A stretch of DNA of 64,000 nucleotides. It comes from Thermoleophilia bacterium SCSIO 60948. Lineage in GTDB: Bacteria > Actinomycetota > Thermoleophilia > Solirubrobacterales > 70-9. Within the stretch, counting starts at the first letter, position 1. Each line of letters starts with the position of its first letter. Where the stretch lies: the NCBI GenBank assembly GCA_021496505.1, contig CP053031.1, positions 2,472,001-2,536,000 on the forward strand. Direction: 5' to 3'. The translations under genes and the position numbers were made by a program. Positions 42,792 to 56,135 of the stretch are shown piece after piece. The notes below the pieces were generated by a model. The model saw only the letters and a list, made by a program, of their open reading frames with translations, did not search any database and was not told the origin of the DNA.

Positions 42792-42978
42792 CCATTCTCC
42801 CGTCGGCCGGCCCGCGCCACGACGTGGCGCGGTGGTGTCTCGATCGGCTTCGAGCAACCGAGACTAGACAGCGAGATCGCCGCGCACGCCGGTTCCCTTG
42901 CGCGCCATCCGTCGCATCGGCACGGGCGTGCGCCCAGCGGGGTGGGTGGCCGGGGGTTCGTTAGGGTCAGGTCCCCAG

Positions 42979-43560
42979 ATGGCCAAGAAACCGCTTCGCT
43001 CCCAGCTCAATCAGATCCGCGCCTGGGTCCGCCAGGGCCGCACCGACGCCTGGATCGCCCACCAGCTCGAGGTCCCCGCCGCCGAGCTCCGCGAGTTCCG
43101 CCGCCGCCACGAGCTTTCCGCCGACGATGAGGACACCGGCGAGATCGACCTCCGCGATGAGATCGAGGCCGAGATCGAGGCGACGATGGCTGCCGCGGAC
43201 GAGGAGGACGACGACGAGGACGCCGACGACGATGACGACGGCGACTCGGACGACGACCCTGCCGACGGCTCCCCGCGCCCCAAGCGCCGGCGCCGCAGGC
43301 GTCGCCGCGGTGGCGGCGGAGGCGGTCGCGGCAAGACCCTCGAGGCGACCTTCGACCACGGCGAGACCGACGGCTACGGGCTCTGGCTCGACCCGGCGAT
43401 CGCCGAGGAGACCGTCTACACGGAGCACTGGGCGGGCCACCACAAGCTCGAGGTCACGATCGAGACCGACCGCATCGTGATCCGCCGTGCCGGCGCCGGT
43501 TCGCAGAACGGTGGCGGAGCCGGCGGCGAGGACCAGGGCGGCGCCGACCCCGCGGAGTAG
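42979..43560 (+). CDS. HTH-like protein with acidic and Arg-rich segments
   Basis: A 193-residue protein. Residues 1-50 look like a helix-turn-helix (QLNQIRAWVRQGRTDAWIAHQLEV). Then follows a very acidic stretch (about 60-95, mostly D/E), a run of Arg (KRRRRRRRR) with Gly, and a C-terminal beta-domain (YGLWLDPAIAEETVYTEHW to RIVIRRAG). A protein with a charged hinge and possible DNA or RNA binding is suggested. I do not know the family by function. It diverges from csrA with a 187-bp spacer. Confidence 0.6.
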   Translation: MAKKPLRSQLNQIRAWVRQGRTDAWIAHQLEVPAAELREFRRRHELSADDEDTGEIDLRDEIEAEIEATMAAADEEDDDEDADDDDDGDSDDDPADGSPRPKRRRRRRRRGGGGGGRGKTLEATFDHGETDGYGLWLDPAIAEETVYTEHWAGHHKLEVTIETDRIVIRRAGAGSQNGGGAGGEDQGGADPAE

Positions 43561-43581: not shown

Positions 43582-46500
43582 CTAGTCGTTGGCCCCGCCC
43601 CCCGCGTCGTGCTCGGCGACGCGACGAAGGATCTTCGCCGCCTTGAGCTCCTCGGCGCCCATCGCCTCGAGCGCATCCTCGTAGCGGCGCTCGACGGCCT
43701 CGCGCTCCTCCGGCGCGACGTGCTCGCGCCAGCGGCCTGAGCCGGCCTCCTCGTCGGTCAGCCGGCCCTTGAAGTAGCGCTTCATCGGCATCTCGTCCTC
43801 GAGCTCGAGGAAGTCGATGAGCTTCGCGTAGATGATCCGCCGGCGTGTGCGGATCAGCTCGTCGAGGCTGATCGTGACCGTGCGGTCGCTGTCGGCGGCC
43901 ACCAGCTCGTGCTCGAGCGAGCGCAGCCTCCCCTCCCAGGCCTCGACGCGGCGCTCGGGCACGCTGACGGCGCCGTTTCGCGCCGCGCCGGGCGGTGGTG
44001 GCGGCGCCCCGTCGTCATCGCTCGCGGCGAGATCGCGACCGTCGCGCAGCACGTGCACGATGCGCGCGCCCGGCACGACCGCGAGCAGCTCACGCGGCCC
44101 GATCCGCGAGCCGCTCGCGTCGATCAGCAGCCCGGGCTTGCCGTACTCGGAGGCGATCGTCCAGACGAGATCGAGCAGCAGGTCGCGTGCCGCCTCCTGT
44201 GGCGAGGCGGCGCTGGCCCCGGCGAGGCGTTCGAGCGCGGCCCGCATCCGCAGCTCAGGCACGAGCCGGTGGAAGGGGTCGCCGGCCTCGCCGGCGCGGA
44301 TCTCCCCGAGGCGCCGCGCGAGGCCCGGAGCGTCGATGTCGCCCGCGGTCAGCTCGGCGACCCCGTCGAGAACGGCGTCGAGCGCCGCGCCGCGCGCGAT
44401 CAGGGCATAGACCGAGTGGTGTTCGAGCAGCGCACCGACGAGTGCCGGGCCGGTCGTGTCGGCTCCGGTCAGGAAGACGATCGCCGCCGGACCCGCGATC
44501 GGCTCGGCGAGCGCCGGCGCCGGCGCAGCGCTCTCCTCCTCCCCGGCCTCGCCGGTCACGGGACCGGATGCGGCGACGGGCTCGCCGGCGCGCTCGGGCG
44601 CGCTCTCGGCGTCGCCGGCGGTCGCGACCGGGACCTCCTCCGACACGTCCCAGACCCGCGGCCGGGCCGCGAGGTCGGCCACGAGGTCCTCGAGCGCGCG
44701 GATGTCGTGCGAATCCGCGCCCTCGGAGAACAGCCGCCGCATCGACTGGTCGCGGACCGCCCGCGGCGAGTCGGCGAAGACGAACTCGGCGATCTGCGCG
44801 TCGAGCCGCGAGGCGCCGTCGATCGAGGCGCCGCCGGCGCGGCCGGCGCGGCGGAGCAACGCGACGAGGTGGGCGTTTCGCTCCGCGCGCTCGGCATCCT
44901 CGCCGGCGGTCAGCTCGGGCACGGGGATCCGGCGCTCGACGGCCTCGCGGAGCGCGTCGCGCTCGGTCGGCCCGAGCGTCGCGATTCCGGCGTGGAGGTC
45001 GGTCGTGTCGGCGCGCCCCGAGCCGAGGGAGCGGATCACGTGAAGCAGCGGGCGGCGGTGCTTCTCCGGGATCGCGCCGGTGACGATCAGGAGCACGAGA
45101 TAGAGGATTCCGAGGCCGATCGCGATCAGGACCTCGAAGACCTCCGGCACGGTCGGCAGCACGTAGAAGAGGCCGCCGCAGAACAACGCGCAGGCAGCGG
45201 TCCTGGCAACCCACGAATACGGGAACGCGATCGGGTCCGGGCCGAACTGCCCGCGCAGGAAGATGCCGAGCGAGGGCACCCCGAAGGCGACGACGAGCCC
45301 GACCGGCGCGGCGTAGACGCCGAGCGCGCCGACGGTCGCGATCGTGACGCCGACGAAGGCGAACGCCGCCCCGACGACGCAGGTGATGAAGACCCGCCGC
45401 GTCTTGCCGGGCCAGCTCGAGGACTGGTTGACGGTCCGAAGCAGCGCCGGGCCGATGATCCCGATCGCCGTCGCGGGGATCAGCCCGCCCGCCTCGCCGA
45501 ACGTCTCGGGGACGATCTGGACGAGCAACTCGCCGACGAGCGTCGTCGCGAGCACCGTCGAGATGCAGAGCATCACGAAGTAGGCGAGGTACTCGCCGCG
45601 CTGCGTCGCCTTGCCGTACTGGTCCTTGGCGGCCTCGAACACCGAGGCGCGGCGCAGCGGGCGCATCGCCATCCGCAGGCCCTGGGGCGCGAACGAGGCG
45701 ATGAACCCGAGTCGCGAGGCGAGCAGGTAGACGCCGAGCGAGGCGTCGTCGACGAACCGCGAGAGGATGAAGACGTCGGCGTTCTGGATCGCCCAGAGCG
45801 AGGTGATGATCGGCACTCGTGGCGCGCCGCGGACGACGATCCGGAGCGTCTCGCGCGGGTCGAACGCGAGCTCGAAGCTGCCGCGGAGCAGCACGACGTC
45901 GAGCAGCGCGCCGATCAGGGTGCCGATGGCCGCTCCGGCGATCGCCCCGGCCAGTCCCTCGCCGGCGATCAGCAGCGCGAGGGTGCCGCCGAACGCGAGC
46001 ACCGGCCTCGACCCCTCGGCGACCAGGAACGCGACCGGACGGTGCTCGAACCAGAGCACGATCGACGCGGTGCGGATGAACGCGGTCGCGCCGCCGAGGA
46101 TCCCCGCCCAGACGATCAGGTTTGCGTCCTGGGGGTCGTTCAGCAGGATCTCGGCGATCGGCTCGCGCAACACGACTACGACCGCGGTCCCGATCACGCC
46201 GAGAAACGCCGCCCAGATCAGCCCGACGCCGAGCGTGCGGACCGGGGAGTCGGCGACGTCGGAGGCGTCGTCGTCCTCGTCGTCGCCGCCGTCGTCGTCG
46301 TCGGAGCCGCCGAAGACGCGCCTGATGATCCCCGGCTTGCAGGCGATCGCGAGCAGCTGGCCGAGCATCATCGCGAGGAAGAACAGGAGCCCGTAGCGGC
46401 CGAGCTCGCTCGGGCCGAGGAAGAGCGCGATCGCGAACAGCGTCCCCATCTGCGCGAGGGCGTTCCACAGCGTCGCGAGGCCGTGGACGCCCGACAGCCG

Positions 46501-46704
46501 GACCGCTTTGACGCCGAGCAGCGCCGCGCTCCCGCCGGGGTTCGTGGCGACCTTCTGCTCGGCGGCGATCGGCTCGGGGGCCGGCTTCGGGCGGCGGCGC
46601 TGCTTCGGGCGCGACGCGACGCGCAGGTAGACCTCGCCCGCCGACCCCGGCGGCAGCGGGTCGACGGCCCCTCCACGTCCCCCCTGGCGCCCCTCGGCGC
46701 TCAT
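43582..46704 (-). CDS. MOP-type flippase fused to a sulfotransferase domain
   Basis: A 1040-residue fusion. Residues 55-550 are a polysaccharide flippase-like transporter with about 12-14 helices; a very acidic loop (GGSDDDDGGDDEDDDASD, about 130-150) lies after the second helix. A linker with Ala/Glu/Pro follows, then from 741 a sulfotransferase fold. The 3'-phosphate motif RIVHVLRDGRD (881-891) is intact, but the 5'-phosphosulfate loop reads TGADTTG (746-752), without the usual basic residue, so activity is uncertain. The joined domains suggest that a lipid-linked glycan is sulfated as it is exported. ATG 46704 is one base after the stop of the next sulfotransferase gene. Confidence 0.8.
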   Translation of the reverse strand: MSAEGRQGGRGGAVDPLPPGSAGEVYLRVASRPKQRRRPKPAPEPIAAEQKVATNPGGSAALLGVKAVRLSGVHGLATLWNALAQMGTLFAIALFLGPSELGRYGLLFFLAMMLGQLLAIACKPGIIRRVFGGSDDDDGGDDEDDDASDVADSPVRTLGVGLIWAAFLGVIGTAVVVVLREPIAEILLNDPQDANLIVWAGILGGATAFIRTASIVLWFEHRPVAFLVAEGSRPVLAFGGTLALLIAGEGLAGAIAGAAIGTLIGALLDVVLLRGSFELAFDPRETLRIVVRGAPRVPIITSLWAIQNADVFILSRFVDDASLGVYLLASRLGFIASFAPQGLRMAMRPLRRASVFEAAKDQYGKATQRGEYLAYFVMLCISTVLATTLVGELLVQIVPETFGEAGGLIPATAIGIIGPALLRTVNQSSSWPGKTRRVFITCVVGAAFAFVGVTIATVGALGVYAAPVGLVVAFGVPSLGIFLRGQFGPDPIAFPYSWVARTAACALFCGGLFYVLPTVPEVFEVLIAIGLGILYLVLLIVTGAIPEKHRRPLLHVIRSLGSGRADTTDLHAGIATLGPTERDALREAVERRIPVPELTAGEDAERAERNAHLVALLRRAGRAGGASIDGASRLDAQIAEFVFADSPRAVRDQSMRRLFSEGADSHDIRALEDLVADLAARPRVWDVSEEVPVATAGDAESAPERAGEPVAASGPVTGEAGEEESAAPAPALAEPIAGPAAIVFLTGADTTGPALVGALLEHHSVYALIARGAALDAVLDGVAELTAGDIDAPGLARRLGEIRAGEAGDPFHRLVPELRMRAALERLAGASAASPQEAARDLLLDLVWTIASEYGKPGLLIDASGSRIGPRELLAVVPGARIVHVLRDGRDLAASDDDGAPPPPPGAARNGAVSVPERRVEAWEGRLRSLEHELVAADSDRTVTISLDELIRTRRRIIYAKLIDFLELEDEMPMKRYFKGRLTDEEAGSGRWREHVAPEEREAVERRYEDALEAMGAEELKAAKILRRVAEHDAGGGAND

Positions 46705-46705
46705 C

Positions 46706-47635
46706 TCAGATCGACCAGCGCCGGAAGCGGCGGCCCGAGAGCTCGCGCATCCGAGCCGCGTCCTCGCGCAGCTCGGCGAGGACGTCGTCGGGGATCGCGG
46801 CGACGAGGTCGTCGCGCGCCGGGCGCTCGATCCGCCTGGCCAGCGGCCAGTAGCCGCTCGCCAGCGCCCAGGCGCGCTCGGGGACGACGCGGCGCGCGGA
46901 CTTGGCGCGTGACTTCGCGAGCCGGTTGCCGAGCGGGGTCGGGCGCGTCTTTCGGTCCGTGCGGTGGCGCTCGTGGCGGAAGCGCGGGTGGGTGAAGTCG
47001 GGCGCGACGCCGGCGAAGTCGAAGACCGTGCGAAGCGTCTTCTCGCGGTCGGCGCGCAGGTCCTCCTGCTCGATGATCAGCACCTGATCGAGCGAGTAGT
47101 ACTCGAGGAAGCGCGAGAGCTGGTCGTGGTAGAGGCTGCGCGCGACGTAGGTCGTGCGGTCGCGGCGGAGCGTCTCGGTGAGGCCGGTCTGCGTGCGCTG
47201 CTTGGCGTAGTTGTGGACCCAGTGGGCGCCGATCCGCTCGATCGGGTCGCGGACGATGTAGATCAGCCGCACGTCGGGAACGACGGAGTGCATCCGCGCC
47301 GGGACGCCGGAGAAGACCGGGTCGGCGGTGTAGTTCGGCGAGGCCTCGCCGCGGATCGGCTTCGAGGGGTCGAACAGACCCCGGTACCACTCGACGCCGC
47401 GGTCCCAGTTGCGCTCGCGGATGAAGAAGTTGACCTCCTTCGGCTGCGACATCTGGATCTCGGGGTGCAGGCCGAGGTAGAAGTGCAGGCCGCTCGTGCC
47501 GCACTTCTGGGCGCCGATCACGATCAGGTTCGGAAGCGCGCCGCGCTCGGCTCCGGGAGCCAGCGCCACGGATCCGCGCTCCGCGGCCTCGGGGGACCCC
47601 GGGTCGCGTCGATCGCCTTCTGAGCCTGATTGCAT
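46706..47635 (-). CDS. Sulfotransferase
   Basis: A 309-residue PAPS-dependent sulfotransferase of the heparan-type group. The 5'-phosphosulfate loop is AQKCGTSG (K44, T47, S48), and the 3'-phosphate motif is YIVRDPIERIGAHW with RDP at 129-131. A conserved start (LPNLIVIGAQKCGTS) follows a 30-residue leader. It resembles the gene at 57178 closely. It should move sulfate from PAPS to a sugar hydroxyl or amine in the cytosol. The upstream glycosyltransferase and the downstream flippase fusion lie within a few bases, so these three probably form one operon. Confidence 0.9.
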   Translation of the reverse strand: MQSGSEGDRRDPGSPEAAERGSVALAPGAERGALPNLIVIGAQKCGTSGLHFYLGLHPEIQMSQPKEVNFFIRERNWDRGVEWYRGLFDPSKPIRGEASPNYTADPVFSGVPARMHSVVPDVRLIYIVRDPIERIGAHWVHNYAKQRTQTGLTETLRRDRTTYVARSLYHDQLSRFLEYYSLDQVLIIEQEDLRADREKTLRTVFDFAGVAPDFTHPRFRHERHRTDRKTRPTPLGNRLAKSRAKSARRVVPERAWALASGYWPLARRIERPARDDLVAAIPDDVLAELREDAARMRELSGRRFRRWSI

Positions 47636-47647
47636 CAGTCGCGCAGG

Positions 47648-49183
47648 CTACCGCCGATCGCGGGCGCCCACCCCTCGGCGCGAGCCCACGATCGCGGCCG
47701 CTCGCGGCGGTACGCGGCCGAGCTCGAGCACGGTCTTCGGTCGCGGGCGGCGGGCCATGATCTCGCCCAGGCGGCGCTCGCAGAACGCGTCCCAGTCGAG
47801 GCCCGACGCGCGGGCGAGGTACTCGCCCTCGGCCGGGATCCGCTCGAACCCGACCCCGGCGGCGAGCAGGGCCGAGAAGTCGAGCGCGTCGGTGATCACG
47901 AGCGTCCGGCGCGGCGACTCGCCGCTGCGCCGAAGCGCGTCGGCGATCGCGTGCGGGAGCTCGGCGGTGGCGAGTCCGAAGGCGAGCACGACGGTGCGCA
48001 CCCGCGGGCGCTCGACGGTCTGGCGACCGATCCGCGACACGGTGCGCGGCACGCTCGAGGCGAAGATCCAGCGGCGGCGGAGCGCCGACGAGGAGGAGGG
48101 CACCGGCGCTTCGATGGCAGCCTCAGCGCCGTCGGCGCCGCCACCCGCGTCCTGGGCCGCGCTCGCGAGATCGGCTCGCTCGCCGGAGGCGAGGCCCTCG
48201 AGCCAGCGCGCGGCCTGCTCCGCCCCGTCGGGCTCGGGCAACGCCCCGAGCCGATCCTCGATCGCCTCACGCTCGGAGCGGTCGAGCAGGCCGTCGAGCC
48301 GCGCTTCGAGCTCCGGGTCGTCGGGGCCGGTGCAGGCCTCGCCGAGTCCAGCCTCGCGCGCCCAGGCGGCGCGGCGCGGCTGGTCGTCGGTCTGGCGCGG
48401 CATCGGCACGTAGAGCGCCGGGACGCCGAGCGCGATCAGCTCGTGGAAGGCGTTGTAGCCCGCCGCCACGACGGCGAGATCGAACGTCGAGGCGAAGCGC
48501 GAGATCGGATAGGTCGGTGGCAGGACGGTGACCCCGTCGGGCGCCTCGCCGAGGTCGGCGAGCGTCGAGGAGAACGCCGCCACCTGGAGTCCGGGGCGGC
48601 CCGAGAGGTGTTCGAGGCAGCGCCGATTGGCCTCGCGCACGCCCGGGCCCTGGCCGAGCTGGACGAGCGCGGTCGGGCGGTGAGGGTTCAACCCGAGCTC
48701 GGCGGCGGCGATCTCGCGCGAGGGGACCTCGGAGCGGTCGATCAGGACGACGGGGCCGACCCGGTGGGCCTCGGCGCGGCGCGCGACGGTCGGGCCGCGA
48801 TCGGCGTCGGCCGCGAGCTCTCCGGGCTCGAGCACGTGATCGAACAGACCCGTGCGATGGAGCGGAGAGGTGTCCGAGCTCGGCAGCCACATCGGCCGGC
48901 GACACCAGACGAGCGGGGCGCCGGAGGCCCGCATCGCCGGGACGACCCGTTCGTAGGGGTGCGTGCCGTCGAACATGACGACCCTCGGCTGCAGGTCGCG
49001 GACGATCGAGTCGACCCTGGCACGGGTCCGCCACGTCCAGGCGATGTCGTTGCCGGCGCCGGGGCGGTCGTAGGACGCGATGTATTCGACCGGGAACCCG
49101 AGCCCCGAGACCACGGGTGCCGCCGCCGAGAAGGTCAGGAAGACGGGCTCGTATCCGGCGCCGAGGCGCCGCGCGATCGCCAT
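47648..49183 (-). CDS. Glycosyltransferase, MurG/UGT-like (GT-B)
   Basis: A GT-B glycosyltransferase of 511 residues from ATG 49183. The nucleotide-sugar part reads VVAAGYNAFHELIALGVPALYVPMPRQTDDQ, the MGT/MurG-like donor motif. The reading frame continues upstream as ILFVTSNGTGLGHLTRS, the true N-terminal strand and GT-B glycine loop, but no ATG, GTG or TTG occurs before the TGA near 49325. Initiation at CTG 49231 or ATC 49234 is possible, or an error in the sequence. A C-terminal extension of about 170 residues carries a second domain without known motif. Donor and acceptor are unknown. Confidence 0.8.
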   Translation of the reverse strand: MAIARRLGAGYEPVFLTFSAAAPVVSGLGFPVEYIASYDRPGAGNDIAWTWRTRARVDSIVRDLQPRVVMFDGTHPYERVVPAMRASGAPLVWCRRPMWLPSSDTSPLHRTGLFDHVLEPGELAADADRGPTVARRAEAHRVGPVVLIDRSEVPSREIAAAELGLNPHRPTALVQLGQGPGVREANRRCLEHLSGRPGLQVAAFSSTLADLGEAPDGVTVLPPTYPISRFASTFDLAVVAAGYNAFHELIALGVPALYVPMPRQTDDQPRRAAWAREAGLGEACTGPDDPELEARLDGLLDRSEREAIEDRLGALPEPDGAEQAARWLEGLASGERADLASAAQDAGGGADGAEAAIEAPVPSSSSALRRRWIFASSVPRTVSRIGRQTVERPRVRTVVLAFGLATAELPHAIADALRRSGESPRRTLVITDALDFSALLAAGVGFERIPAEGEYLARASGLDWDAFCERRLGEIMARRPRPKTVLELGRVPPRAAAIVGSRRGVGARDRR

Positions 49184-49284: not shown

Positions 49285-50397
49285 CTACTCCCCCACCTCT
49301 CGCTCGCGCTCCTCGACGGTTTCATCCTCGCCGTCGAGCTCGCCCTCGTAGTCGGGGTCCTGTTCGGCCGCGTCGGGATCCTCGCCGCGGGCACGCGCGG
49401 CACGGCGCTCGTCCGAGCGCTCGAGCGCCTCGCGGAGCAGCGGCGCCGAGCTGACGCCGTCGGCCTCGAGCGAATCGAGGATCTCGCGATAGCGAGCGTC
49501 GATCTGGGCCTGCTTTCGCTCCGAGAGACCGCGCCGCCAGCGCTCCTCGTTGGCCGACCCCGAGCTCATCCGGCGGCGGACGAAGTGCTTCGTGCGCCTG
49601 CCCTGGCTGACGCCCGCGAAGTTGAGCAGTCGCCGCAGCTCGATCTTGCGCTGACCGGGCTCGAGGAACGATCCGAGCTCGACCTCGATCAGACGGTCGT
49701 CGGGGATCAGCCTGGCGCCGCGGTCGACCCCGCGAAGCCGTGCCTCCCACCAGTCGAGACCCTGGCGCCGGGTCCGTGGGTAGATCAGCAGCCGCTTCTG
49801 CGAGACGCGCGAGGCCGAGGCGTCGCGCCCGTCGCGGACGGCGTGGATGAAGCGCGCCTCGGGGAACAGCTTCAGCATCGTCTCGGCCTGGAGGATCGTG
49901 TCGCAGCTCTGCTCGATGATCCCGCTCATCCGCTCGTCGCGCTGGGGCTCGAGCCACAGCAGGTCGAAGAACAGGTTGCGGCAGGCCGCGATCGGATCGG
50001 CGTCGTAGGCGGACTCGAAGCGATCGACGGCCGGATCGAAGACCTCGCGCGGTACGTAGCGGTGCAGGCCGCGCATCTTGTCGGTGCGAAACCCCTTCCA
50101 CCAGTAGCCGCGGAGGCGCTCGACGAACTGCTGCTTCGAGACCTCGCCGGCGAGCAGGCCGGGGTAGCCGTCGGCGTCGGCGTGGAAGCGGCACTCGATC
50201 GGGACGAGGCCGTAGTTGACGTTCTTCGACAGCAGCCGGGCGAGGATGTGGGTCCCCGAGCGCCCCGTCCCGCCGACGAAGACGACCGGCGCGGGGTCGG
50301 GCGCGCGGCCCTCGCCGCGTCCGCGGTTCTCGGGATCCTCGATCACCCGGGTGCCCGGTTCTGCGACCGGACCTGATTCGGCATTCTCGTGCGCCAC
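49285..50397 (-). CDS. Sulfotransferase
   Basis: A 370-residue sulfotransferase from GTG 50397. The phosphosulfate loop is GGTGRSGTH (GRSGTH at 45-50), and the 3'-phosphate motif is RFIHAVRDGRDASASRV. The C-terminus is acidic (GEDPDAAEQDPDYEGELDG). It is divergent from three tandem sulfotransferases over a 43-bp spacer. The longer upstream reading frame runs into the divergent gene and is not used. It acts on the same kind of acceptor as its relatives, presumably a glycan, which is inferred from the neighbours. Confidence 0.88.
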   Translation of the reverse strand: MAHENAESGPVAEPGTRVIEDPENRGRGEGRAPDPAPVVFVGGTGRSGTHILARLLSKNVNYGLVPIECRFHADADGYPGLLAGEVSKQQFVERLRGYWWKGFRTDKMRGLHRYVPREVFDPAVDRFESAYDADPIAACRNLFFDLLWLEPQRDERMSGIIEQSCDTILQAETMLKLFPEARFIHAVRDGRDASASRVSQKRLLIYPRTRRQGLDWWEARLRGVDRGARLIPDDRLIEVELGSFLEPGQRKIELRRLLNFAGVSQGRRTKHFVRRRMSSGSANEERWRRGLSERKQAQIDARYREILDSLEADGVSSAPLLREALERSDERRAARARGEDPDAAEQDPDYEGELDGEDETVEEREREVGE

Positions 50398-50440
50398 GAA
50401 GCGCGAAGGATAGGCGCGAGCTCCTACCCTGAGGACCGCG

Positions 50441-51310
50441 ATGGAGGACGCGCCCGACCAGCTCCCCGAGCCGATCTTCGTCGGTGGCGTCGGTCGCAGT
50501 GGCACCCACGTGATGGCGAAGCTCCTCGACCAGCACCCGCGCTTCCATCGCGTGCGCACCGAGGCGCGCCTCCACTCCTCCCCGCACGGGCTCGCCGATC
50601 TCGATGCGGGACGGACGACGCTCGAGGAGTTCGGCGAGCGGATGCGCGGTCACTGGTGGCTGCGCGGCGCCAACGCGCGCCAGGGACTCAGCCGGATCGT
50701 CGAGCGCGAGACGTTCGACGCCGCGATGGAGACGTTCGAGTCCGGCTTCGAGGCCGACCCGCGCGGCGCGGCCAGGACGCTCATCGACTCGCTGCTCTCA
50801 CCCGGGGCCGAGGCGGCCGGTAAGCCGGTCTGGGTCGAGATCACGGGCCACAACGTCGAGGCCGCCTCCTACCTGCTCGAGCTCTATCCGCGGGCGCGGT
50901 TCATCAACATGGTCCGCGACGGTCGCGCGGTCGTCGCGGCGACGCTCAAGAAGCCCGACCTCACCGACGAGCCGAAGCGCGCGCTGAAGCGCTGGGAGCA
51001 CATGATCCGCGCCGCCGACGGTTCGTTTCGCGCCCTACCCCCCGGCGTGATGCTGAACGTCGCGCTCGACGACCTGACCGCCCACGACCGCGAGCGCACG
51101 CTCGACTCGGTCATCCGGCACTGCGAGATCGCCGATCCCGAGCCGATCCGCGAGTGGTTCGCCCGTGAGGTCTCGGCCGAGCGCGCGCATGTCGGCGGCT
51201 GGCGCGAGCGGATGGCCCCGGCGGATGTGCGCTGGGTCGATCGCCGCTATCGCCGGCTCGTCGGGCGGATGCATCGCGACGGCATAACCTGGGCGCCCGA
51301 ACCGCGATGA
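50441..51310 (+). CDS. Sulfotransferase, first of three tandem paralogues
   Basis: A 289-residue sulfotransferase. The phosphosulfate loop is GGVGRSGTH (GRSGTH 18-23), and the 3'-phosphate site is INMVRDGRAVVAATL (RDGR 159-162). Further shared stretches with the next two genes are HNVEAASYLLELYPRA, LDDLTAHDRERTL and SAERAHVGGWRERM. The stop overlaps the ATG of the second gene by 4 nt. As in the paralogues, no signal peptide or membrane segment is found, so it works in the cytosol before or during export. Confidence 0.9.
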   Translation: MEDAPDQLPEPIFVGGVGRSGTHVMAKLLDQHPRFHRVRTEARLHSSPHGLADLDAGRTTLEEFGERMRGHWWLRGANARQGLSRIVERETFDAAMETFESGFEADPRGAARTLIDSLLSPGAEAAGKPVWVEITGHNVEAASYLLELYPRARFINMVRDGRAVVAATLKKPDLTDEPKRALKRWEHMIRAADGSFRALPPGVMLNVALDDLTAHDRERTLDSVIRHCEIADPEPIREWFAREVSAERAHVGGWRERMAPADVRWVDRRYRRLVGRMHRDGITWAPEPR

Positions 51311-52299
51311 GCAGCACCGAATCACAGCCCGGGGCGAGCGTCGACGCCGACACGGCGCCGTACCCGCATCCGATCTTCGTCGGCGGCTCGGCGCGCGCCG
51401 GAACGCACGCGATGGGCCGGCTGATCGCCGCCGATCCGCGCTACCACCTGGTCGACGTCGAGGCGCGCTTCCACTGCGCGACCGGCGGGCTCACCGACCT
51501 GCTCGAGGGCAAGGGCTCGGTCGAGGACTTCCTGCGGCGCTGCCGTCAGCAGTGGTACCGGCGCGGACTCCAGAACCACGTCGGCCTCCAGAAGGTGATC
51601 GGCGAGGACGAATTCGAGGCGGCTCTGGCGCCGTTTCCCGCCGATTTCGAGGCTGACCCGTGGGCGGCGTGCCGCAAGCTGACCCACGCGCTGCTCGACC
51701 CCGGTGCCGAGCGCGAGGGCAAGCCGGCCTGGGCCGAGGTCTCGGGCTCGAACATCCGCTCCGCGCCGACGCTTCTGCGGCTGTTCCCGAACGCGCGCTT
51801 CGTCCACATGGTCCGCGACGGTCGCGCCGTGACCGCGGCGATCCTTCGAAAGCGCGACATGACCGACGACGTCGAGCGCGCCTTCGGCCACTGGGAGACG
51901 CGCGTCAAGCGCTCCGACGAGGCGCTGCGGACGCTGCCCGAAGGCCACGCGCTGACCGTCTTCCTCGACGACCTCACAGCGCACGATCGCGACAACACCT
52001 TCAACCGGCTCGCGAGCTTCCTCGAGCTCGACGACCCCGAGCCGATGCGGACCTACTTCGACGCGAAGATCTCCTCCGAGCGAGCCCACGTCGGCAAGTG
52101 GCGCGAGCGGATCTCGCCCGCCGATGCGCGCTGGGTCGACCGCCGCTACCGGCGCCTGGTGCGCGAGCTGCGCCGCGACGGGGTCGACTGGGTGCCCGAG
52201 CCCGAGCCGCAGGACAGCGCGGTCGAGCGGATCGCGGAGCGCGCCGGCGAACCGGTCGCGAAGCTGGCCGAGAAGGCGCGCGAGCTGCGAAGCCGATGA
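51307..52299 (+). CDS. Sulfotransferase, second of three tandem paralogues
   Basis: A 330-residue sulfotransferase with the loop GGSARAGTH (26-34), slightly changed from GRSGTH but keeping the basic residue. The 3'-phosphate motif is VHMVRDGRAVTAAIL. A 20-residue N-terminal and a 40-residue C-terminal extension, helical and charged, distinguish it from its neighbours. ATGA overlaps join it on both sides. Loop and extension differences suggest a different acceptor position. Confidence 0.9.
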   Translation: MSSTESQPGASVDADTAPYPHPIFVGGSARAGTHAMGRLIAADPRYHLVDVEARFHCATGGLTDLLEGKGSVEDFLRRCRQQWYRRGLQNHVGLQKVIGEDEFEAALAPFPADFEADPWAACRKLTHALLDPGAEREGKPAWAEVSGSNIRSAPTLLRLFPNARFVHMVRDGRAVTAAILRKRDMTDDVERAFGHWETRVKRSDEALRTLPEGHALTVFLDDLTAHDRDNTFNRLASFLELDDPEPMRTYFDAKISSERAHVGKWRERISPADARWVDRRYRRLVRELRRDGVDWVPEPEPQDSAVERIAERAGEPVAKLAEKARELRSR

Positions 52300-53162
52300 G
52301 CGGGGCGGACGGCTTCCCGCGGCCGATCTTCGTCGGCGGCGTCGGGCGCTCCGGCACCCACGTCATGGGCCGGATGCTGAACGAGCATCCGCGCTACCAC
52401 TGGATCCCGACCGAGGTCCGCTTCCACGCCTCGAAGGGCGGGCTGCCCGATCTGTGCCGCGGCGAGACGACGCTCGAGCGTTTCCTGTCGGAGATGCGCG
52501 GGCGCTGGTTCATCCGCGGCGCCAACGCGCGCAACGGCCTCCAACGGGTCACCGACCGCGAGGGTCTCGAGGCGGCGCTCGAGGAGTTCGAGGCGGGCTT
52601 CGAGGCCGACCGCGAGGGCGCGAGCGGACGCCTGATCCGGCGGCTGCTCGACCCGCCCGCCGAGGCGGCCGGCAAACCCGGCTGGGTCGAGATCACGGGC
52701 CAGACGATCGAGGAGGCGCCGTTCCTGCTGCGGCTGTTCCCCGAGGCCAAGTTCATCAACATGGTCCGCGACGGCCGCGCCGTCGTCGCGGGGATGCTGA
52801 AGAAGGTCGACCTGACCGACGACCCGGCGGTCGCGCTCGAGAAGTGGACCGGCATGGTCGAGGCCGCCGACCGGGCGATCGACGCGGTCGGGGCCGACCG
52901 CGTCCTCACCGTGCCGCTGGACGACCTGACCGCGCACGACCGCGACGCGACGCTCGAGCGCGTCATCGCCTTCACCGAGCTCGACGACCCGAGTCCGGTC
53001 CGTGCCTACTTCGAGCGCGAGATCTCGGCCGAGCGGGCGCACGTCGGCGGCTGGCGCGAGCGGATGGCGCCGGCCGACGTCCGCTGGGTCGATCGCCGCT
53101 ACAAGCGCGTGATCCGCCAGCTCCATCGCGACGGCGTCGACTGGGCGCCTGCTCCGCGCTAG
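52296..53162 (+). CDS. Sulfotransferase, third of three tandem paralogues
   Basis: A 288-residue sulfotransferase starting MSGADGFPRPIFVGG. The loop is GRSGTH (17-22), and the 3'-phosphate motif is INMVRDGRAVVAGML. It is closer to the first paralogue than to the second (shared LDDLTAHDR and SAERAHVGGWRERMAPADVRW). The ATG overlaps the preceding TGA by ATGA. It ends 26 bp before the convergent sulfatase gene stop, so the operon ends here. Confidence 0.9.
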   Translation: MSGADGFPRPIFVGGVGRSGTHVMGRMLNEHPRYHWIPTEVRFHASKGGLPDLCRGETTLERFLSEMRGRWFIRGANARNGLQRVTDREGLEAALEEFEAGFEADREGASGRLIRRLLDPPAEAAGKPGWVEITGQTIEEAPFLLRLFPEAKFINMVRDGRAVVAGMLKKVDLTDDPAVALEKWTGMVEAADRAIDAVGADRVLTVPLDDLTAHDRDATLERVIAFTELDDPSPVRAYFEREISAERAHVGGWRERMAPADVRWVDRRYKRVIRQLHRDGVDWAPAPR

Positions 53163-53187: not shown

Positions 53188-54657
53188 TCAGCCGCAGGCC
53201 GCGCCGGCGCAGCTCTCGAGCGCCGTCAGGCGCACGCGCATCTCCCCGAGGATCGCGGCGTACCCCGGGTCGGTCGCGAGGTTCGTGAGCTGGAAGTGGT
53301 CCTCGGCCCGGTCATAGAGCTCCTCGTAGGTCTGACCGTCGACCCGCTGGCGGATGTAGGTCCAGCGCTCGGAGCGGACCGAGGCGCCGACCTGGCCGGG
53401 GGCGCCGCCGTCGCGATTCTCAGTCAGGACGTGGCGGTCGGCGTAGGCCTCCGGGTCGGAGGCGATCGCCTGGAGCGCGACGCCGTCCGGGGTCTTCGGC
53501 GGCGCCGCGCCGGCGGCCTCGAGTACGGTCGCGGCGAGGTCGACGCTCGTCACCGGCACGTCGACGTCACGGCCCCTGAACCCGGGACCCCTGATCGCCA
53601 GCGGCACCCCGGCGCTCTCTTCGTAGAGGAGGGTCTTCTTCGCCAGGCGGTGCTCGCCGAGCATGAAGCCGTTGTCGGAGGTGAAGACGAAGATCGTGTT
53701 CGAGAGCTCGCCGGCGGCGCGGAGCCGGTCGCGGATTCGCGCGACCGCCTCGTCGACGGCGAGCAGCGACTCGCCGCGGCCCTTGAAGCGACGCTTGAGG
53801 TTCTGGATCTTGCCGAACCCCAGCTCGGGGACCTGGAGGAAGCTCGGCTTGTCGGAGACGTCGGCCTCGTTGAAGGACGGCGGCTCGGGGAACGGCACGT
53901 CGTTGAACTCGCCCTGGTGGCGCGGCGCCGGTCGCGGATCTCGCGCACCCGCGCCGCCGCCGGACTCGCCGTGTGGAGCGTGGGTCGAGAGCATCAGGAA
54001 GAAGGGCTTGCGGCGCTTCGCGCTGACCGCGGTCTGCTGCGAGGCGAGTCGCGCGAGGACGTCGGTCTGGTAGTCGCGAGCTCGGTTCCCGAACTGGCGG
54101 ATGCGCTTCCCGTCGACGCTCAGCGCCCAGTCGAAGAGGTCGTAGCGGACGAGCGCGAGGAACCGCGACCAGCCGGGTGGCGCCTCGCCCGCCGGGTCAC
54201 CGGGCGCGGCGTCGTCTTCCCATCCGTTCAGGTACTTCCCGACGAGGACGTTGCGGTAGCCGGCATCGGCGAGCGACGTCGCGACCGTGCTGGACGCGTC
54301 GAACTGCGGGACGCAGGAGCGGTTGCCGCCGCCCTCGACCGCGCCCGAGTTGTGGGCGAACTGGCCGCTGAGGAAGCTCGCACGCGACGGGCAGCAGAGC
54401 GGGAATGCAGCCGACGCGTCACGGAACTCGACACCCCGCCCCGCGATCTCGCGTCGCACGACGGGCATCCGGCGCATCGCGCGACGGTCGGCGTCGTCGG
54501 TCATGACGACGACGATGTTCGGGCGCTCGTCGGGCGCCGCCGCCTGTGCCGCTCGCTCGCGCCAGGCCGTCTCGTCCCCTCGCGCAGCGTCGACCGTGAG
54601 GAGCGCCGCGAGTCCCGCCGCGAGGGCGAGCGCGGCGCGGCGCCTCACCTGTTGCAC
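53188..54657 (-). CDS. Secreted sulfatase, formylglycine type
   Basis: A 489-residue sulfatase. The signal peptide (LALAAGLAALLTVDAA) is followed by the metal-binding start IVVVMTDDAD (D54, D55) and the modification site PLCCPSRASF, in which C88 of CxPSR is turned into formylglycine. Later metal ligands lie in FVFTSDNGFMLGEH. It should hydrolyse sulfate esters outside the cell. The formylglycine-generating enzyme is not in the window. It overlaps the second sulfatase gene by 13 nt and shares much of its sequence (ADVSDKPSF, APHGE). Confidence 0.92.
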   Translation of the reverse strand: MQQVRRRAALALAAGLAALLTVDAARGDETAWRERAAQAAAPDERPNIVVVMTDDADRRAMRRMPVVRREIAGRGVEFRDASAAFPLCCPSRASFLSGQFAHNSGAVEGGGNRSCVPQFDASSTVATSLADAGYRNVLVGKYLNGWEDDAAPGDPAGEAPPGWSRFLALVRYDLFDWALSVDGKRIRQFGNRARDYQTDVLARLASQQTAVSAKRRKPFFLMLSTHAPHGESGGGAGARDPRPAPRHQGEFNDVPFPEPPSFNEADVSDKPSFLQVPELGFGKIQNLKRRFKGRGESLLAVDEAVARIRDRLRAAGELSNTIFVFTSDNGFMLGEHRLAKKTLLYEESAGVPLAIRGPGFRGRDVDVPVTSVDLAATVLEAAGAAPPKTPDGVALQAIASDPEAYADRHVLTENRDGGAPGQVGASVRSERWTYIRQRVDGQTYEELYDRAEDHFQLTNLATDPGYAAILGEMRVRLTALESCAGAACG

Positions 54658-56135
54658 TCCGCGCCGGCGCAGTCACGCAGCTCGTCGACCCTCTGGGCCA
54701 ACCGCGCCTGCTCGGAATCGCTCGTCGCGTTCGAGTCGTAGATGTTCTGGAGCTGGAACGGGTCCCTGTTCAGGTCGTAGAGCTCGTACTCGCGCGGCTC
54801 GCCGGCCTGCTTGTGCTCGGCGTAGAGGTTGTCGCGTGACCGCAGGCCGACGGAGAACGAGTTCTCGAGCAGCAGCTCGCGATCGCGGGCCATCTGGGGG
54901 TCGTCGATCAGCGGCAGCATCGAGATCCCGTCCATCTCGACGAGCGGGCGCGTGCCCGCGGCGTCGAGGATCGTCGGCGCGAGGTCGACATTGCTGGTCT
55001 GCTGGGTTCGGACCTCGCCCTTCGGGATCCCGGGACCGCGGATCAGCATCGGCACCCGGACGCTCTCCTCATACAGCAGGCTCTTGCCGGTCCAGCGATG
55101 CTGGCCCGACATCCGTCCGTTGTCGGAGGTGAAGATCACGTAGGTGTTCCGCCACTCGTCACGCTGCTTGAGCGTGCGCTTGATCCGCCCGATCATGTCG
55201 TCGACCGCGAGCAGGCTCTCGGCGCGGGCGCGGTAGCGCTCCTCGAGCCCTCTGATCTGACGCTCGCTGAGCGGCTCCTTGTTCTGGATGAACGACGGCT
55301 TGTCGGAGACGTCCTCCTCGTTGAACGAGGGCGGCTTGGGAAGCTCGAGCTGGTCGAAGCGGCCCTCGTGGCGCGGAGCGGGGCGAGGGTTGGGCTTGCC
55401 GCCGTAGGCCGCCTCACCGTGCGGCGCGAGCGGCTGGACCGTGAGAAAGAACGGGTCTCGTTTCTTCGAGGACTTGCGGATGAAGTCGACGGCCTCGTCG
55501 GACTCGACGTCGGTCAGGTAGTCCTTCGGGCGCTTGCCGTAGCGGCGGATCTTGCCGTTGTCGTTTGCCCGCCAGCCGAACATCTTGCTGTCGAGGTTGG
55601 AGAAGAACGTGTCGAACCCGCGCGGGATGTTCTTCGGCCGCTTCTCGGCGCGGTTCGGATAGCCGTTCATGAACTTGCCGATGAAGCCGGTCCGGTAGCC
55701 GTCGCGCTGCAGCGCGCGCGGAGCGGTCCCGCGGTCATCGAACTGGCCGTAGCCGCCGTCGGGCGGGTGGTTGCCCCGCACGCCGTGGTTGTGCGCGTAC
55801 TGGCCGGTCAGCAGCGTCGCGCGCGACGGCGAGCAGAGCGGATAGCTCGCGTAGAAGTTCTCGAACTCGACGCCGCCGCGGCCGAGCACGCGCTTCGTCG
55901 TTCGCATCTTGCGCATCGACAGCAGGTCCTGATCGTCGGTCATCACGACGACGAAGTTCGGGCGCTTGTCGGCGCGCGCCTCCTCGCGGGCGGCGCTCGC
56001 GCTCGGTTCGCGCAGCATCGCGAACCCGAGACCGATCGCGGTCAGGGCGAGCGAGGAGAACAGGGCCCGGACGAAAAGGCGGGAACGCAGGGCTCCCGTC
56101 GGCCAGGCGAAACTTTTCACGCGGTTCCGCGACAC
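54645..56135 (-). CDS. Secreted sulfatase, formylglycine type
   Basis: A 496-residue sulfatase from GTG 56135. A hydrophobic signal/anchor (LFSSLALTAIGLGF) follows a basic leader. The metal site is VVVMTDDQD (D67, D68) and the formylglycine motif is PLCSPSRATLL (C101). The ligand stretch VIFTSDNGRMSGQHR is intact. It is a paralogue of the preceding gene. With so many sulfotransferases next to it, it could trim or recycle the organism's own sulfated glycan, or protect it from foreign ones; the sequence does not tell which. Confidence 0.92.
   Translation of the reverse strand: MSRNRVKSFAWPTGALRSRLFVRALFSSLALTAIGLGFAMLREPSASAAREEARADKRPNFVVVMTDDQDLLSMRKMRTTKRVLGRGGVEFENFYASYPLCSPSRATLLTGQYAHNHGVRGNHPPDGGYGQFDDRGTAPRALQRDGYRTGFIGKFMNGYPNRAEKRPKNIPRGFDTFFSNLDSKMFGWRANDNGKIRRYGKRPKDYLTDVESDEAVDFIRKSSKKRDPFFLTVQPLAPHGEAAYGGKPNPRPAPRHEGRFDQLELPKPPSFNEEDVSDKPSFIQNKEPLSERQIRGLEERYRARAESLLAVDDMIGRIKRTLKQRDEWRNTYVIFTSDNGRMSGQHRWTGKSLLYEESVRVPMLIRGPGIPKGEVRTQQTSNVDLAPTILDAAGTRPLVEMDGISMLPLIDDPQMARDRELLLENSFSVGLRSRDNLYAEHKQAGEPREYELYDLNRDPFQLQNIYDSNATSDSEQARLAQRVDELRDCAGAECNR

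What the first reader, a model, noticed from the sequence alone, without database searches (positions are those of the whole stretch)
43582..46704. Flippase fused to a sulfotransferase with an altered phosphosulfate loop
One chain joins a MOP-type exporter (12-14 helices) and a sulfotransferase fold. The 3'-phosphate motif is intact but the first loop reads TGADTTG, lacking the basic residue of GRSGTT/QKCGTS. It may sulfate during export or bind PAPS or sulfated glycan as a sensor.
Basis: partly seen in the sequence, partly recalled or inferred. Interest (0 to 1): 0.75.

Follow-up and report, generated by a model that had tools for sequence, protein, structure and literature searches.

The report
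Flippase fused to a dead sulfotransferase
A Solirubrobacterales-type actinobacterium carries a membrane protein that probably flips a sugar-lipid across the membrane and has, fused to its tail, a sulfate-transferring enzyme domain whose catalytic residues are gone, suggesting the dead enzyme was kept as a docking or control piece for the exporter.

Summary
ORF 43582-46704(-) encodes one 1040-aa chain: a 14-helix MOP flippase (MurJ/WzxE-like fold), a conserved tail (to ~690), a disordered linker (~691-738) and a sulfotransferase-fold domain (~739-1034; AF2 pLDDT 87; nearest fold TPST1/2, Z 18.4). Coding signal stays in one frame across the linker.

The sulfotransferase domain lost more than the basic residue. 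The 5'-phosphosulfate loop GTGRSGTH is GADTTGPA, the presumed catalytic Glu (ExRFH) is gone, and a WW pair is deleted. It lost 18 of 27 conserved columns in its N-terminal half but kept 12 of 12 in its C-terminal half, including the 3'-phosphate motif. It is best read as a pseudo-sulfotransferase, not an enzyme that sulfates during export.

Relatives carry flippase plus tail as a free-standing gene, usually in the same syntenic sulfation locus beside separate intact sulfotransferases. In family, order, class and phylum searches the fusion appeared only here. The closest known arrangement is mycobacterial MurJ/MviN: a flippase with a linker and a pseudokinase that recruits an inhibitor. Likely role: a non-catalytic docking or control module for the flippase. 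Limits: one genome, no expression data, originating sulfotransferase class unresolved.

The parts
43582..46704 (-). Fusion ORF, 1040 aa: MOP flippase + tail + linker + pseudo-sulfotransferase
45082..46536 (-). 14-TM MOP flippase domain (res ~57-541)
   Evidence: AF2 model; Foldseek hits MurJ, WzxE, MATE; conserved in relatives
46246..46308 (-). Acidic loop between TM2 and TM3, GGSDDDDGGDDEDDDASDVAD (res 133-153), after the conserved GxIxRxFGG motif
   Evidence: acidic in all 11 aligned relatives
44635..45066 (-). Conserved cytosolic-side tail after TM14 (res ~547-690); the free-standing relatives end shortly after it
44491..44634 (-). A/E/P-rich disordered linker (res ~691-738)
   Evidence: pLDDT about 35; coding frame continuous
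43603..44490 (-). Sulfotransferase-fold domain, catalytically degenerate (res ~739-1034)
44443..44469 (-). Degenerate 5'-PSB loop TGADTTGPA (res 746-754); consensus GGTGRSGTH
44020..44046 (-). Retained 3'-phosphate-binding motif RDGRDLAAS (res 887-895)
46706..47635 (-). Intact Sulfotransfer_1/3 gene (QKCGTS loop) ending 1 nt before the fusion start codon; syntenic in relatives
47648..49183 (-). GT28/MurG-like glycosyltransferase, syntenic
   Evidence: weak Pfam/NCBIfam hits; synteny
49285..50469 (-). Intact class A Sulfotransfer_3 gene
50441..51310 (+). Intact class D Sulfotransfer_3 gene
51307..52299 (+). Class D Sulfotransfer_3 gene (loop RAGTH)
52263..53162 (+). Intact class D Sulfotransfer_3 gene
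53188..54657 (-). Sulfatase
54645..56135 (-). Sulfatase
42898..43560 (+). Convergent gene of unknown family that marks the 3' border of the locus in relatives too

Best explanation
The protein is the Wzx-type (MOP) lipid-linked glycan flippase of a sulfated-glycan or glycolipid locus. In this lineage a duplicated or relocated sulfotransferase of that locus became fused, through a flexible linker, to the flippase's conserved cytosolic tail and then lost catalysis. The pseudo-sulfotransferase keeps the fold and the 3'-phosphate half but not the 5'-phosphosulfate loop or the presumed catalytic Glu. It most likely works as a non-catalytic docking or control module at the cytosolic mouth of the flippase, holding sulfotransferases or their sulfated product near the exporter or gating export, much as the pseudokinase on mycobacterial MurJ/MviN recruits a regulator. 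Shown: the fusion frame, the fold, the lost and kept residues, the synteny and the absence from relatives. Inferred: cytosolic placement (even number of helices), the sulfated-glycan cargo, and the docking or control role.
For: Fold and homology. Loss confined to the catalytic half: 18/27 conserved columns lost in the N half, 0/12 in the C half, Fisher p 8e-5; the 29 intact locus sulfotransferases lose at most 7 in total. No stop codon despite an end branch of 1.8-2.0 against a median of about 0.25, which suggests the fold is still constrained. Flippase and sulfotransferase genes are neighbours in most relatives: conserved order ST-ST-GT-ST1-flippase; in G213 an ST stop codon TAG abuts the flippase ATG in the same frame; in G026 a class A ST overlaps the flippase start. 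An APS kinase is present, so PAPS can be made. The genome has a separate MurJ, so this flippase is not the lipid II flippase. Precedent: MviN pseudokinase recruits inhibitory FhaA (PMC12599244; PMC6180346).
Against: Only one genome carries the fusion, so conservation of the fused domain itself cannot be shown. The long branch is also what decay looks like. No interaction partner is known, and the cargo is inferred from neighbours only. The conserved-column test used a boundary (residue 878) chosen after seeing the pattern.
Confidence: 0.5

Rival explanations
1. Decaying passenger: a sulfotransferase was fused by chance, became inactive and is drifting with no function while the flippase works as before.
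For: Very long branch; no other genome has it; relatives' flippases work without it; codon signal somewhat weaker in residues ~690-900.
Against: No stops or frameshifts; confident fold; 12 of 12 C-half conserved columns kept, a pattern not expected from even drift.
Confidence: 0.22
2. Ligand sensor: the domain still binds PAP(S) through the 3'-phosphate half, or binds a sulfated glycan, and gates the flippase according to sulfation state.
For: RDGRDLAAS with Arg and Ser at the canonical spacing is kept while the transfer half is lost.
Against: The loop that holds the 5'-phosphate is gone (Gly, Arg, Ser, Thr replaced), so nucleotide affinity may be low; no binding data.
Confidence: 0.15
3. Sequencing or assembly error removed a stop codon between two adjacent genes, a flippase and a sulfotransferase-like gene.
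For: Fusion seen in one genome only; in G213 a single TAG separates an ST and a flippase in the same frame.
Against: Coding signal continues in the annotated frame across residues 690-740; no ribosome-site-like sequence seen before GTG716; in the studied relatives the next gene after the flippase is the convergent marker gene, not a sulfotransferase. Even then the domain would still be a pseudo-sulfotransferase.
Confidence: 0.07
4. Active sulfotransferase with an unorthodox phosphosulfate loop that sulfates the lipid-linked glycan as it is flipped.
For: Sulfotransferase fold and 3'-phosphate motif retained; published reviews note that some sulfotransferases have non-consensus motifs (PMC9372746, PMC11625862).
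Against: Arg of 5'-PSB, Thr of 5'-PSB, the presumed catalytic Glu, and the Arg and His after it are all lost, each 100% conserved in the 29 intact locus sulfotransferases.
Confidence: 0.06

Closest known systems
Mycobacterium tuberculosis MurJ/MviN (14-TM MOP flippase + linker + pseudokinase)
   Same: MOP flippase, functional tail after TM14, then a catalytically dead enzyme domain at the C-terminus (PMC12599244, PMC6180346)
   Different: Dead domain is a sulfotransferase, not a kinase; flippase is not MurJ (separate MurJ in the genome); no known partner
Human tyrosylprotein sulfotransferases TPST1/TPST2
   Same: Closest solved fold, Z 18.4; locus sulfotransferase profile matches at E about 1e-19
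   Different: Lacks the 5'-PSB Arg and the catalytic base (this one), only 12-14% identical, fused to a flippase
Wzx/WzxE polysaccharide flippases
   Same: MOP fold, gene neighbourhood with glycosyltransferase
   Different: Acidic loop after TM2, ~140-aa conserved tail, and the fused domain
Free-standing flippase of the same locus in other Solirubrobacterales (e.g. L010, L042)
   Same: Up to ~50% identity over residues 30-690, same synteny
   Different: No sulfotransferase domain

Membership tests
Sulfotransferase (PF13469 Sulfotransfer_3 / TPST-like) | Pfam curated cut-off (27 bits) | tested here: not met
   19.2 bits whole protein, 22.7 bits for the domain alone
Sulfotransferase (PF13469 Sulfotransfer_3 / TPST-like) | PAPS-dependent sulfotransferase fold | tested here: met
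   AF2 pLDDT 87; TPST1/2 Z 18.4, rmsd 3.8 over 241 residues
Sulfotransferase (PF13469 Sulfotransfer_3 / TPST-like) | 5'-PSB loop with Arg/Lys and Gly-Thr | tested here: not met
   GADTTGPA; Arg->Thr, Thr->Pro
Sulfotransferase (PF13469 Sulfotransfer_3 / TPST-like) | Catalytic base Glu (ExRFH motif; role assigned from TPST, PMC9372746) | tested here: not met
   Glu->Gly, Arg->Ala, His->Asp
Sulfotransferase (PF13469 Sulfotransfer_3 / TPST-like) | 3'-PB motif R...S | tested here: met
   RDGRDLAAS
Sulfotransferase (PF13469 Sulfotransfer_3 / TPST-like) | Sulfate transfer activity | not testable with these tools
   needs enzyme assay
MOP / Wzx flippase | 12-14 TM MOP fold | tested here: met
   14 membrane-length helices by my count; MurJ, WzxE and MATE matches, E 2.5e-7 and below 1e-3 for 52 chains
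MOP / Wzx flippase | Pfam Polysacc_synt or MatE over cut-off | tested here: not met
   23.6 vs 28.2 and 23.1 vs 24.9 bits
MOP / Wzx flippase | Export of a lipid-linked glycan | not testable with these tools
   inferred from fold and neighbours
MurJ (lipid II flippase) | Match to PF03023 MurJ | tested here: not met
   the genome's MurJ lies at C1:1997064-1998365; this locus is not among the matches
MviN-type flippase-pseudoenzyme | C-terminal pseudokinase | tested here: not met
   C-terminal domain has a sulfotransferase fold

The most novel reading that the evidence does not exclude
A flippase that carries a pseudo-sulfotransferase as a built-in checkpoint: the domain binds the sulfated product, PAP or a sulfotransferase partner and allows export only when the glycan is correctly sulfated.
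Probability: 0.25. Interest if true: 0.75.

Novelty: new variant of a known kind. Interest (0 to 1): 0.5.

Why it matters
Pseudoenzymes fused to transporters are a plausible way to tie synthesis to export, but few cases outside the mycobacterial MurJ pseudokinase are described in what I read. A sulfotransferase version would extend the principle to sulfated glycans and give a single-chain system for testing whether sulfation state gates a MOP flippase. It also marks a conserved, apparently undescribed sulfotransferase-GT-flippase locus in Solirubrobacterales.

Tried and rejected
The search for related loci with the single protein in genome contigs gave no relatives; the alignment-based scan then gave 11, all without the fusion in one frame; the L062 match spanning residues 30-1035 is a separate ST gene upstream of the flippase. 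A mixed alignment of flippases and sulfotransferases (A3) misplaced the sulfotransferases and was not used for folding, so the full-length domain packing was not modelled. Placing the fused domain in sulfotransferase class A, B or C failed: one tree put it next to A, another beside B and A; AU tests do not reject B (p 0.22) or C (p 0.25), only D (p 0.02); HMM scores tie A and C (157.4 and 157.1 bits). The idea that G025 holds a sulfotransferase remnant after its flippase stop was rejected: the region encodes the convergent marker gene. A frameshift artefact was rejected on coding signal. Literature searches for a sulfotransferase-flippase fusion returned two papers; I looked into one, which does not report such a fusion, and for a pseudo-sulfotransferase one unrelated review; the library is partial.

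Full report
What is there. The ORF at 43582-46704 on the minus strand is a single 1040-residue frame. GC3 is 0.86-1.00 along its length, and a codon-usage score trained on 16 other window genes favours the annotated frame in every 30-codon window from residue 561 to 1025, including the linker. The preceding sulfotransferase gene (46706-47635) ends one base before its ATG, so the two are probably translationally coupled.

Flippase half. Pfam sees Polysacc_synt and MatE just under the curated cut-offs. An AF2 model of residues 1-734 from 11 relatives (pLDDT 77) has 14 membrane-length helices by my count, and Foldseek ranks MurJ, WzxE and MATE structures first. The genome's MurJ is elsewhere. In all relatives an acidic run follows the conserved GxIxRxFGG motif in the loop after TM2, and a tail of about 140 residues follows TM14. 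With an even number of helices and a basic N-terminus both ends should be cytosolic (inference), which is where PAPS is made; an APS kinase is encoded.

Sulfotransferase half. BLAST links the domain to the sulfotransferases of the same locus in relatives at up to 132 bits. The AF2 model (pLDDT 87.3, pTM 0.85) matches human TPST1/2 at Z 18.4. Across 29 intact locus sulfotransferases, 39 columns are at least 90% conserved. The fused domain loses 18 of 27 in the N-terminal half and 0 of 12 in the C-terminal half (Fisher p 8e-5; the dividing line was drawn after seeing the pattern). Lost: three of the four key 5'-PSB letters and their neighbours (GTGRSGTH to GADTTGPA), the Glu of ExRFH together with its Arg and His, and a WW pair. 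Kept: RDGR...S, the Trp, Leu, WR and Tyr positions of the C-terminal half. In known sulfotransferases the 5'-PSB Lys/Arg, a His or Glu base and the 3'-PB Ser are the activity-critical motifs (PMC9372746; PMC11625862). That the Glu of ExRFH is the base here is by analogy with TPST and was not tested. The domain is therefore almost certainly not a sulfotransferase in function.

Relatives. The window genome's nearest named relatives are Solirubrobacterales MAGs. Its GTDB family shares the order: sulfatases - class A ST - class B/C ST - GT28-like - ST1 - flippase, then a convergent marker gene, CsrA and a nuclease. The flippase with its tail is free-standing in all relatives examined, including the genus-mate G024, whose flippase stops after 668 residues (its contig ends 51 bases later, so what follows is unknown). 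In G000 and G024 the class B and C sulfotransferases are missing between class A and the GT; it is tempting to see the fused domain as a relocated B or C gene, but the trees cannot decide between A, B and C. Searches of the family (50 genomes), order (232), class (399) and phylum (396), which overlap in part, found no second fusion.

Coupling in relatives. In G213, of another family of the order, an ST gene ends with TAG directly followed, in the same frame, by the flippase ATG; in G026 a class A ST overlaps the flippase start. Flippase and sulfotransferases are thus repeatedly next to each other even where they are not fused.

Interpretation. The best reading is a pseudo-sulfotransferase tethered to the exporter. 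The mycobacterial MurJ/MviN gives the working model: a 14-TM flippase, a functional linker that binds a partner, and a dead kinase domain that recruits an inhibitor (PMC12599244; PMC6180346). Whether the module here docks partner sulfotransferases, senses PAP or sulfated glycan, or is an evolving passenger cannot be settled from one genome. I put about 0.5 on docking or control, 0.22 on passenger, 0.15 on ligand sensor, 0.07 on an artefact and 0.06 on an active enzyme.

Noticed in passing
L054:9547-10416(+) and L052:4557-5348(-): Two free-standing class C sulfotransferases in relatives G021 and G019 (same genus g3) have also lost the PSB Arg (to His/Phe), the ExRFH Glu (to Ala) and the 3'-PB Ser: a second, independent inactivation at the same locus.
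   Followed up: partly
window 46246-46308 and the same loop in L010, L042-L051: An 8-12 residue Asp/Glu run is kept in the loop after TM2 of this flippase family, right after a conserved GxIxRxFGG motif; no known function.
   Followed up: no
window 44635-45066: The ~140-residue tail after TM14 is conserved across three families of the order and matches no Pfam domain; it resembles in position the essential CwlM-binding linker of mycobacterial MurJ.
   Followed up: partly
L067:7238-7246: In G213 a sulfotransferase stop codon TAG is immediately followed by the flippase ATG in the same frame.
   Followed up: yes
whole genome G000: About 17 Sulfotransfer_3 loci in a 3.4 Mb genome, plus sulfatases and an APS kinase: unusually sulfation-rich.
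   Followed up: partly
window 42898-43560: Convergent gene with a long acidic and Arg-rich middle and conserved ends, no Pfam match, always next to the locus and csrA in relatives.
   Followed up: partly
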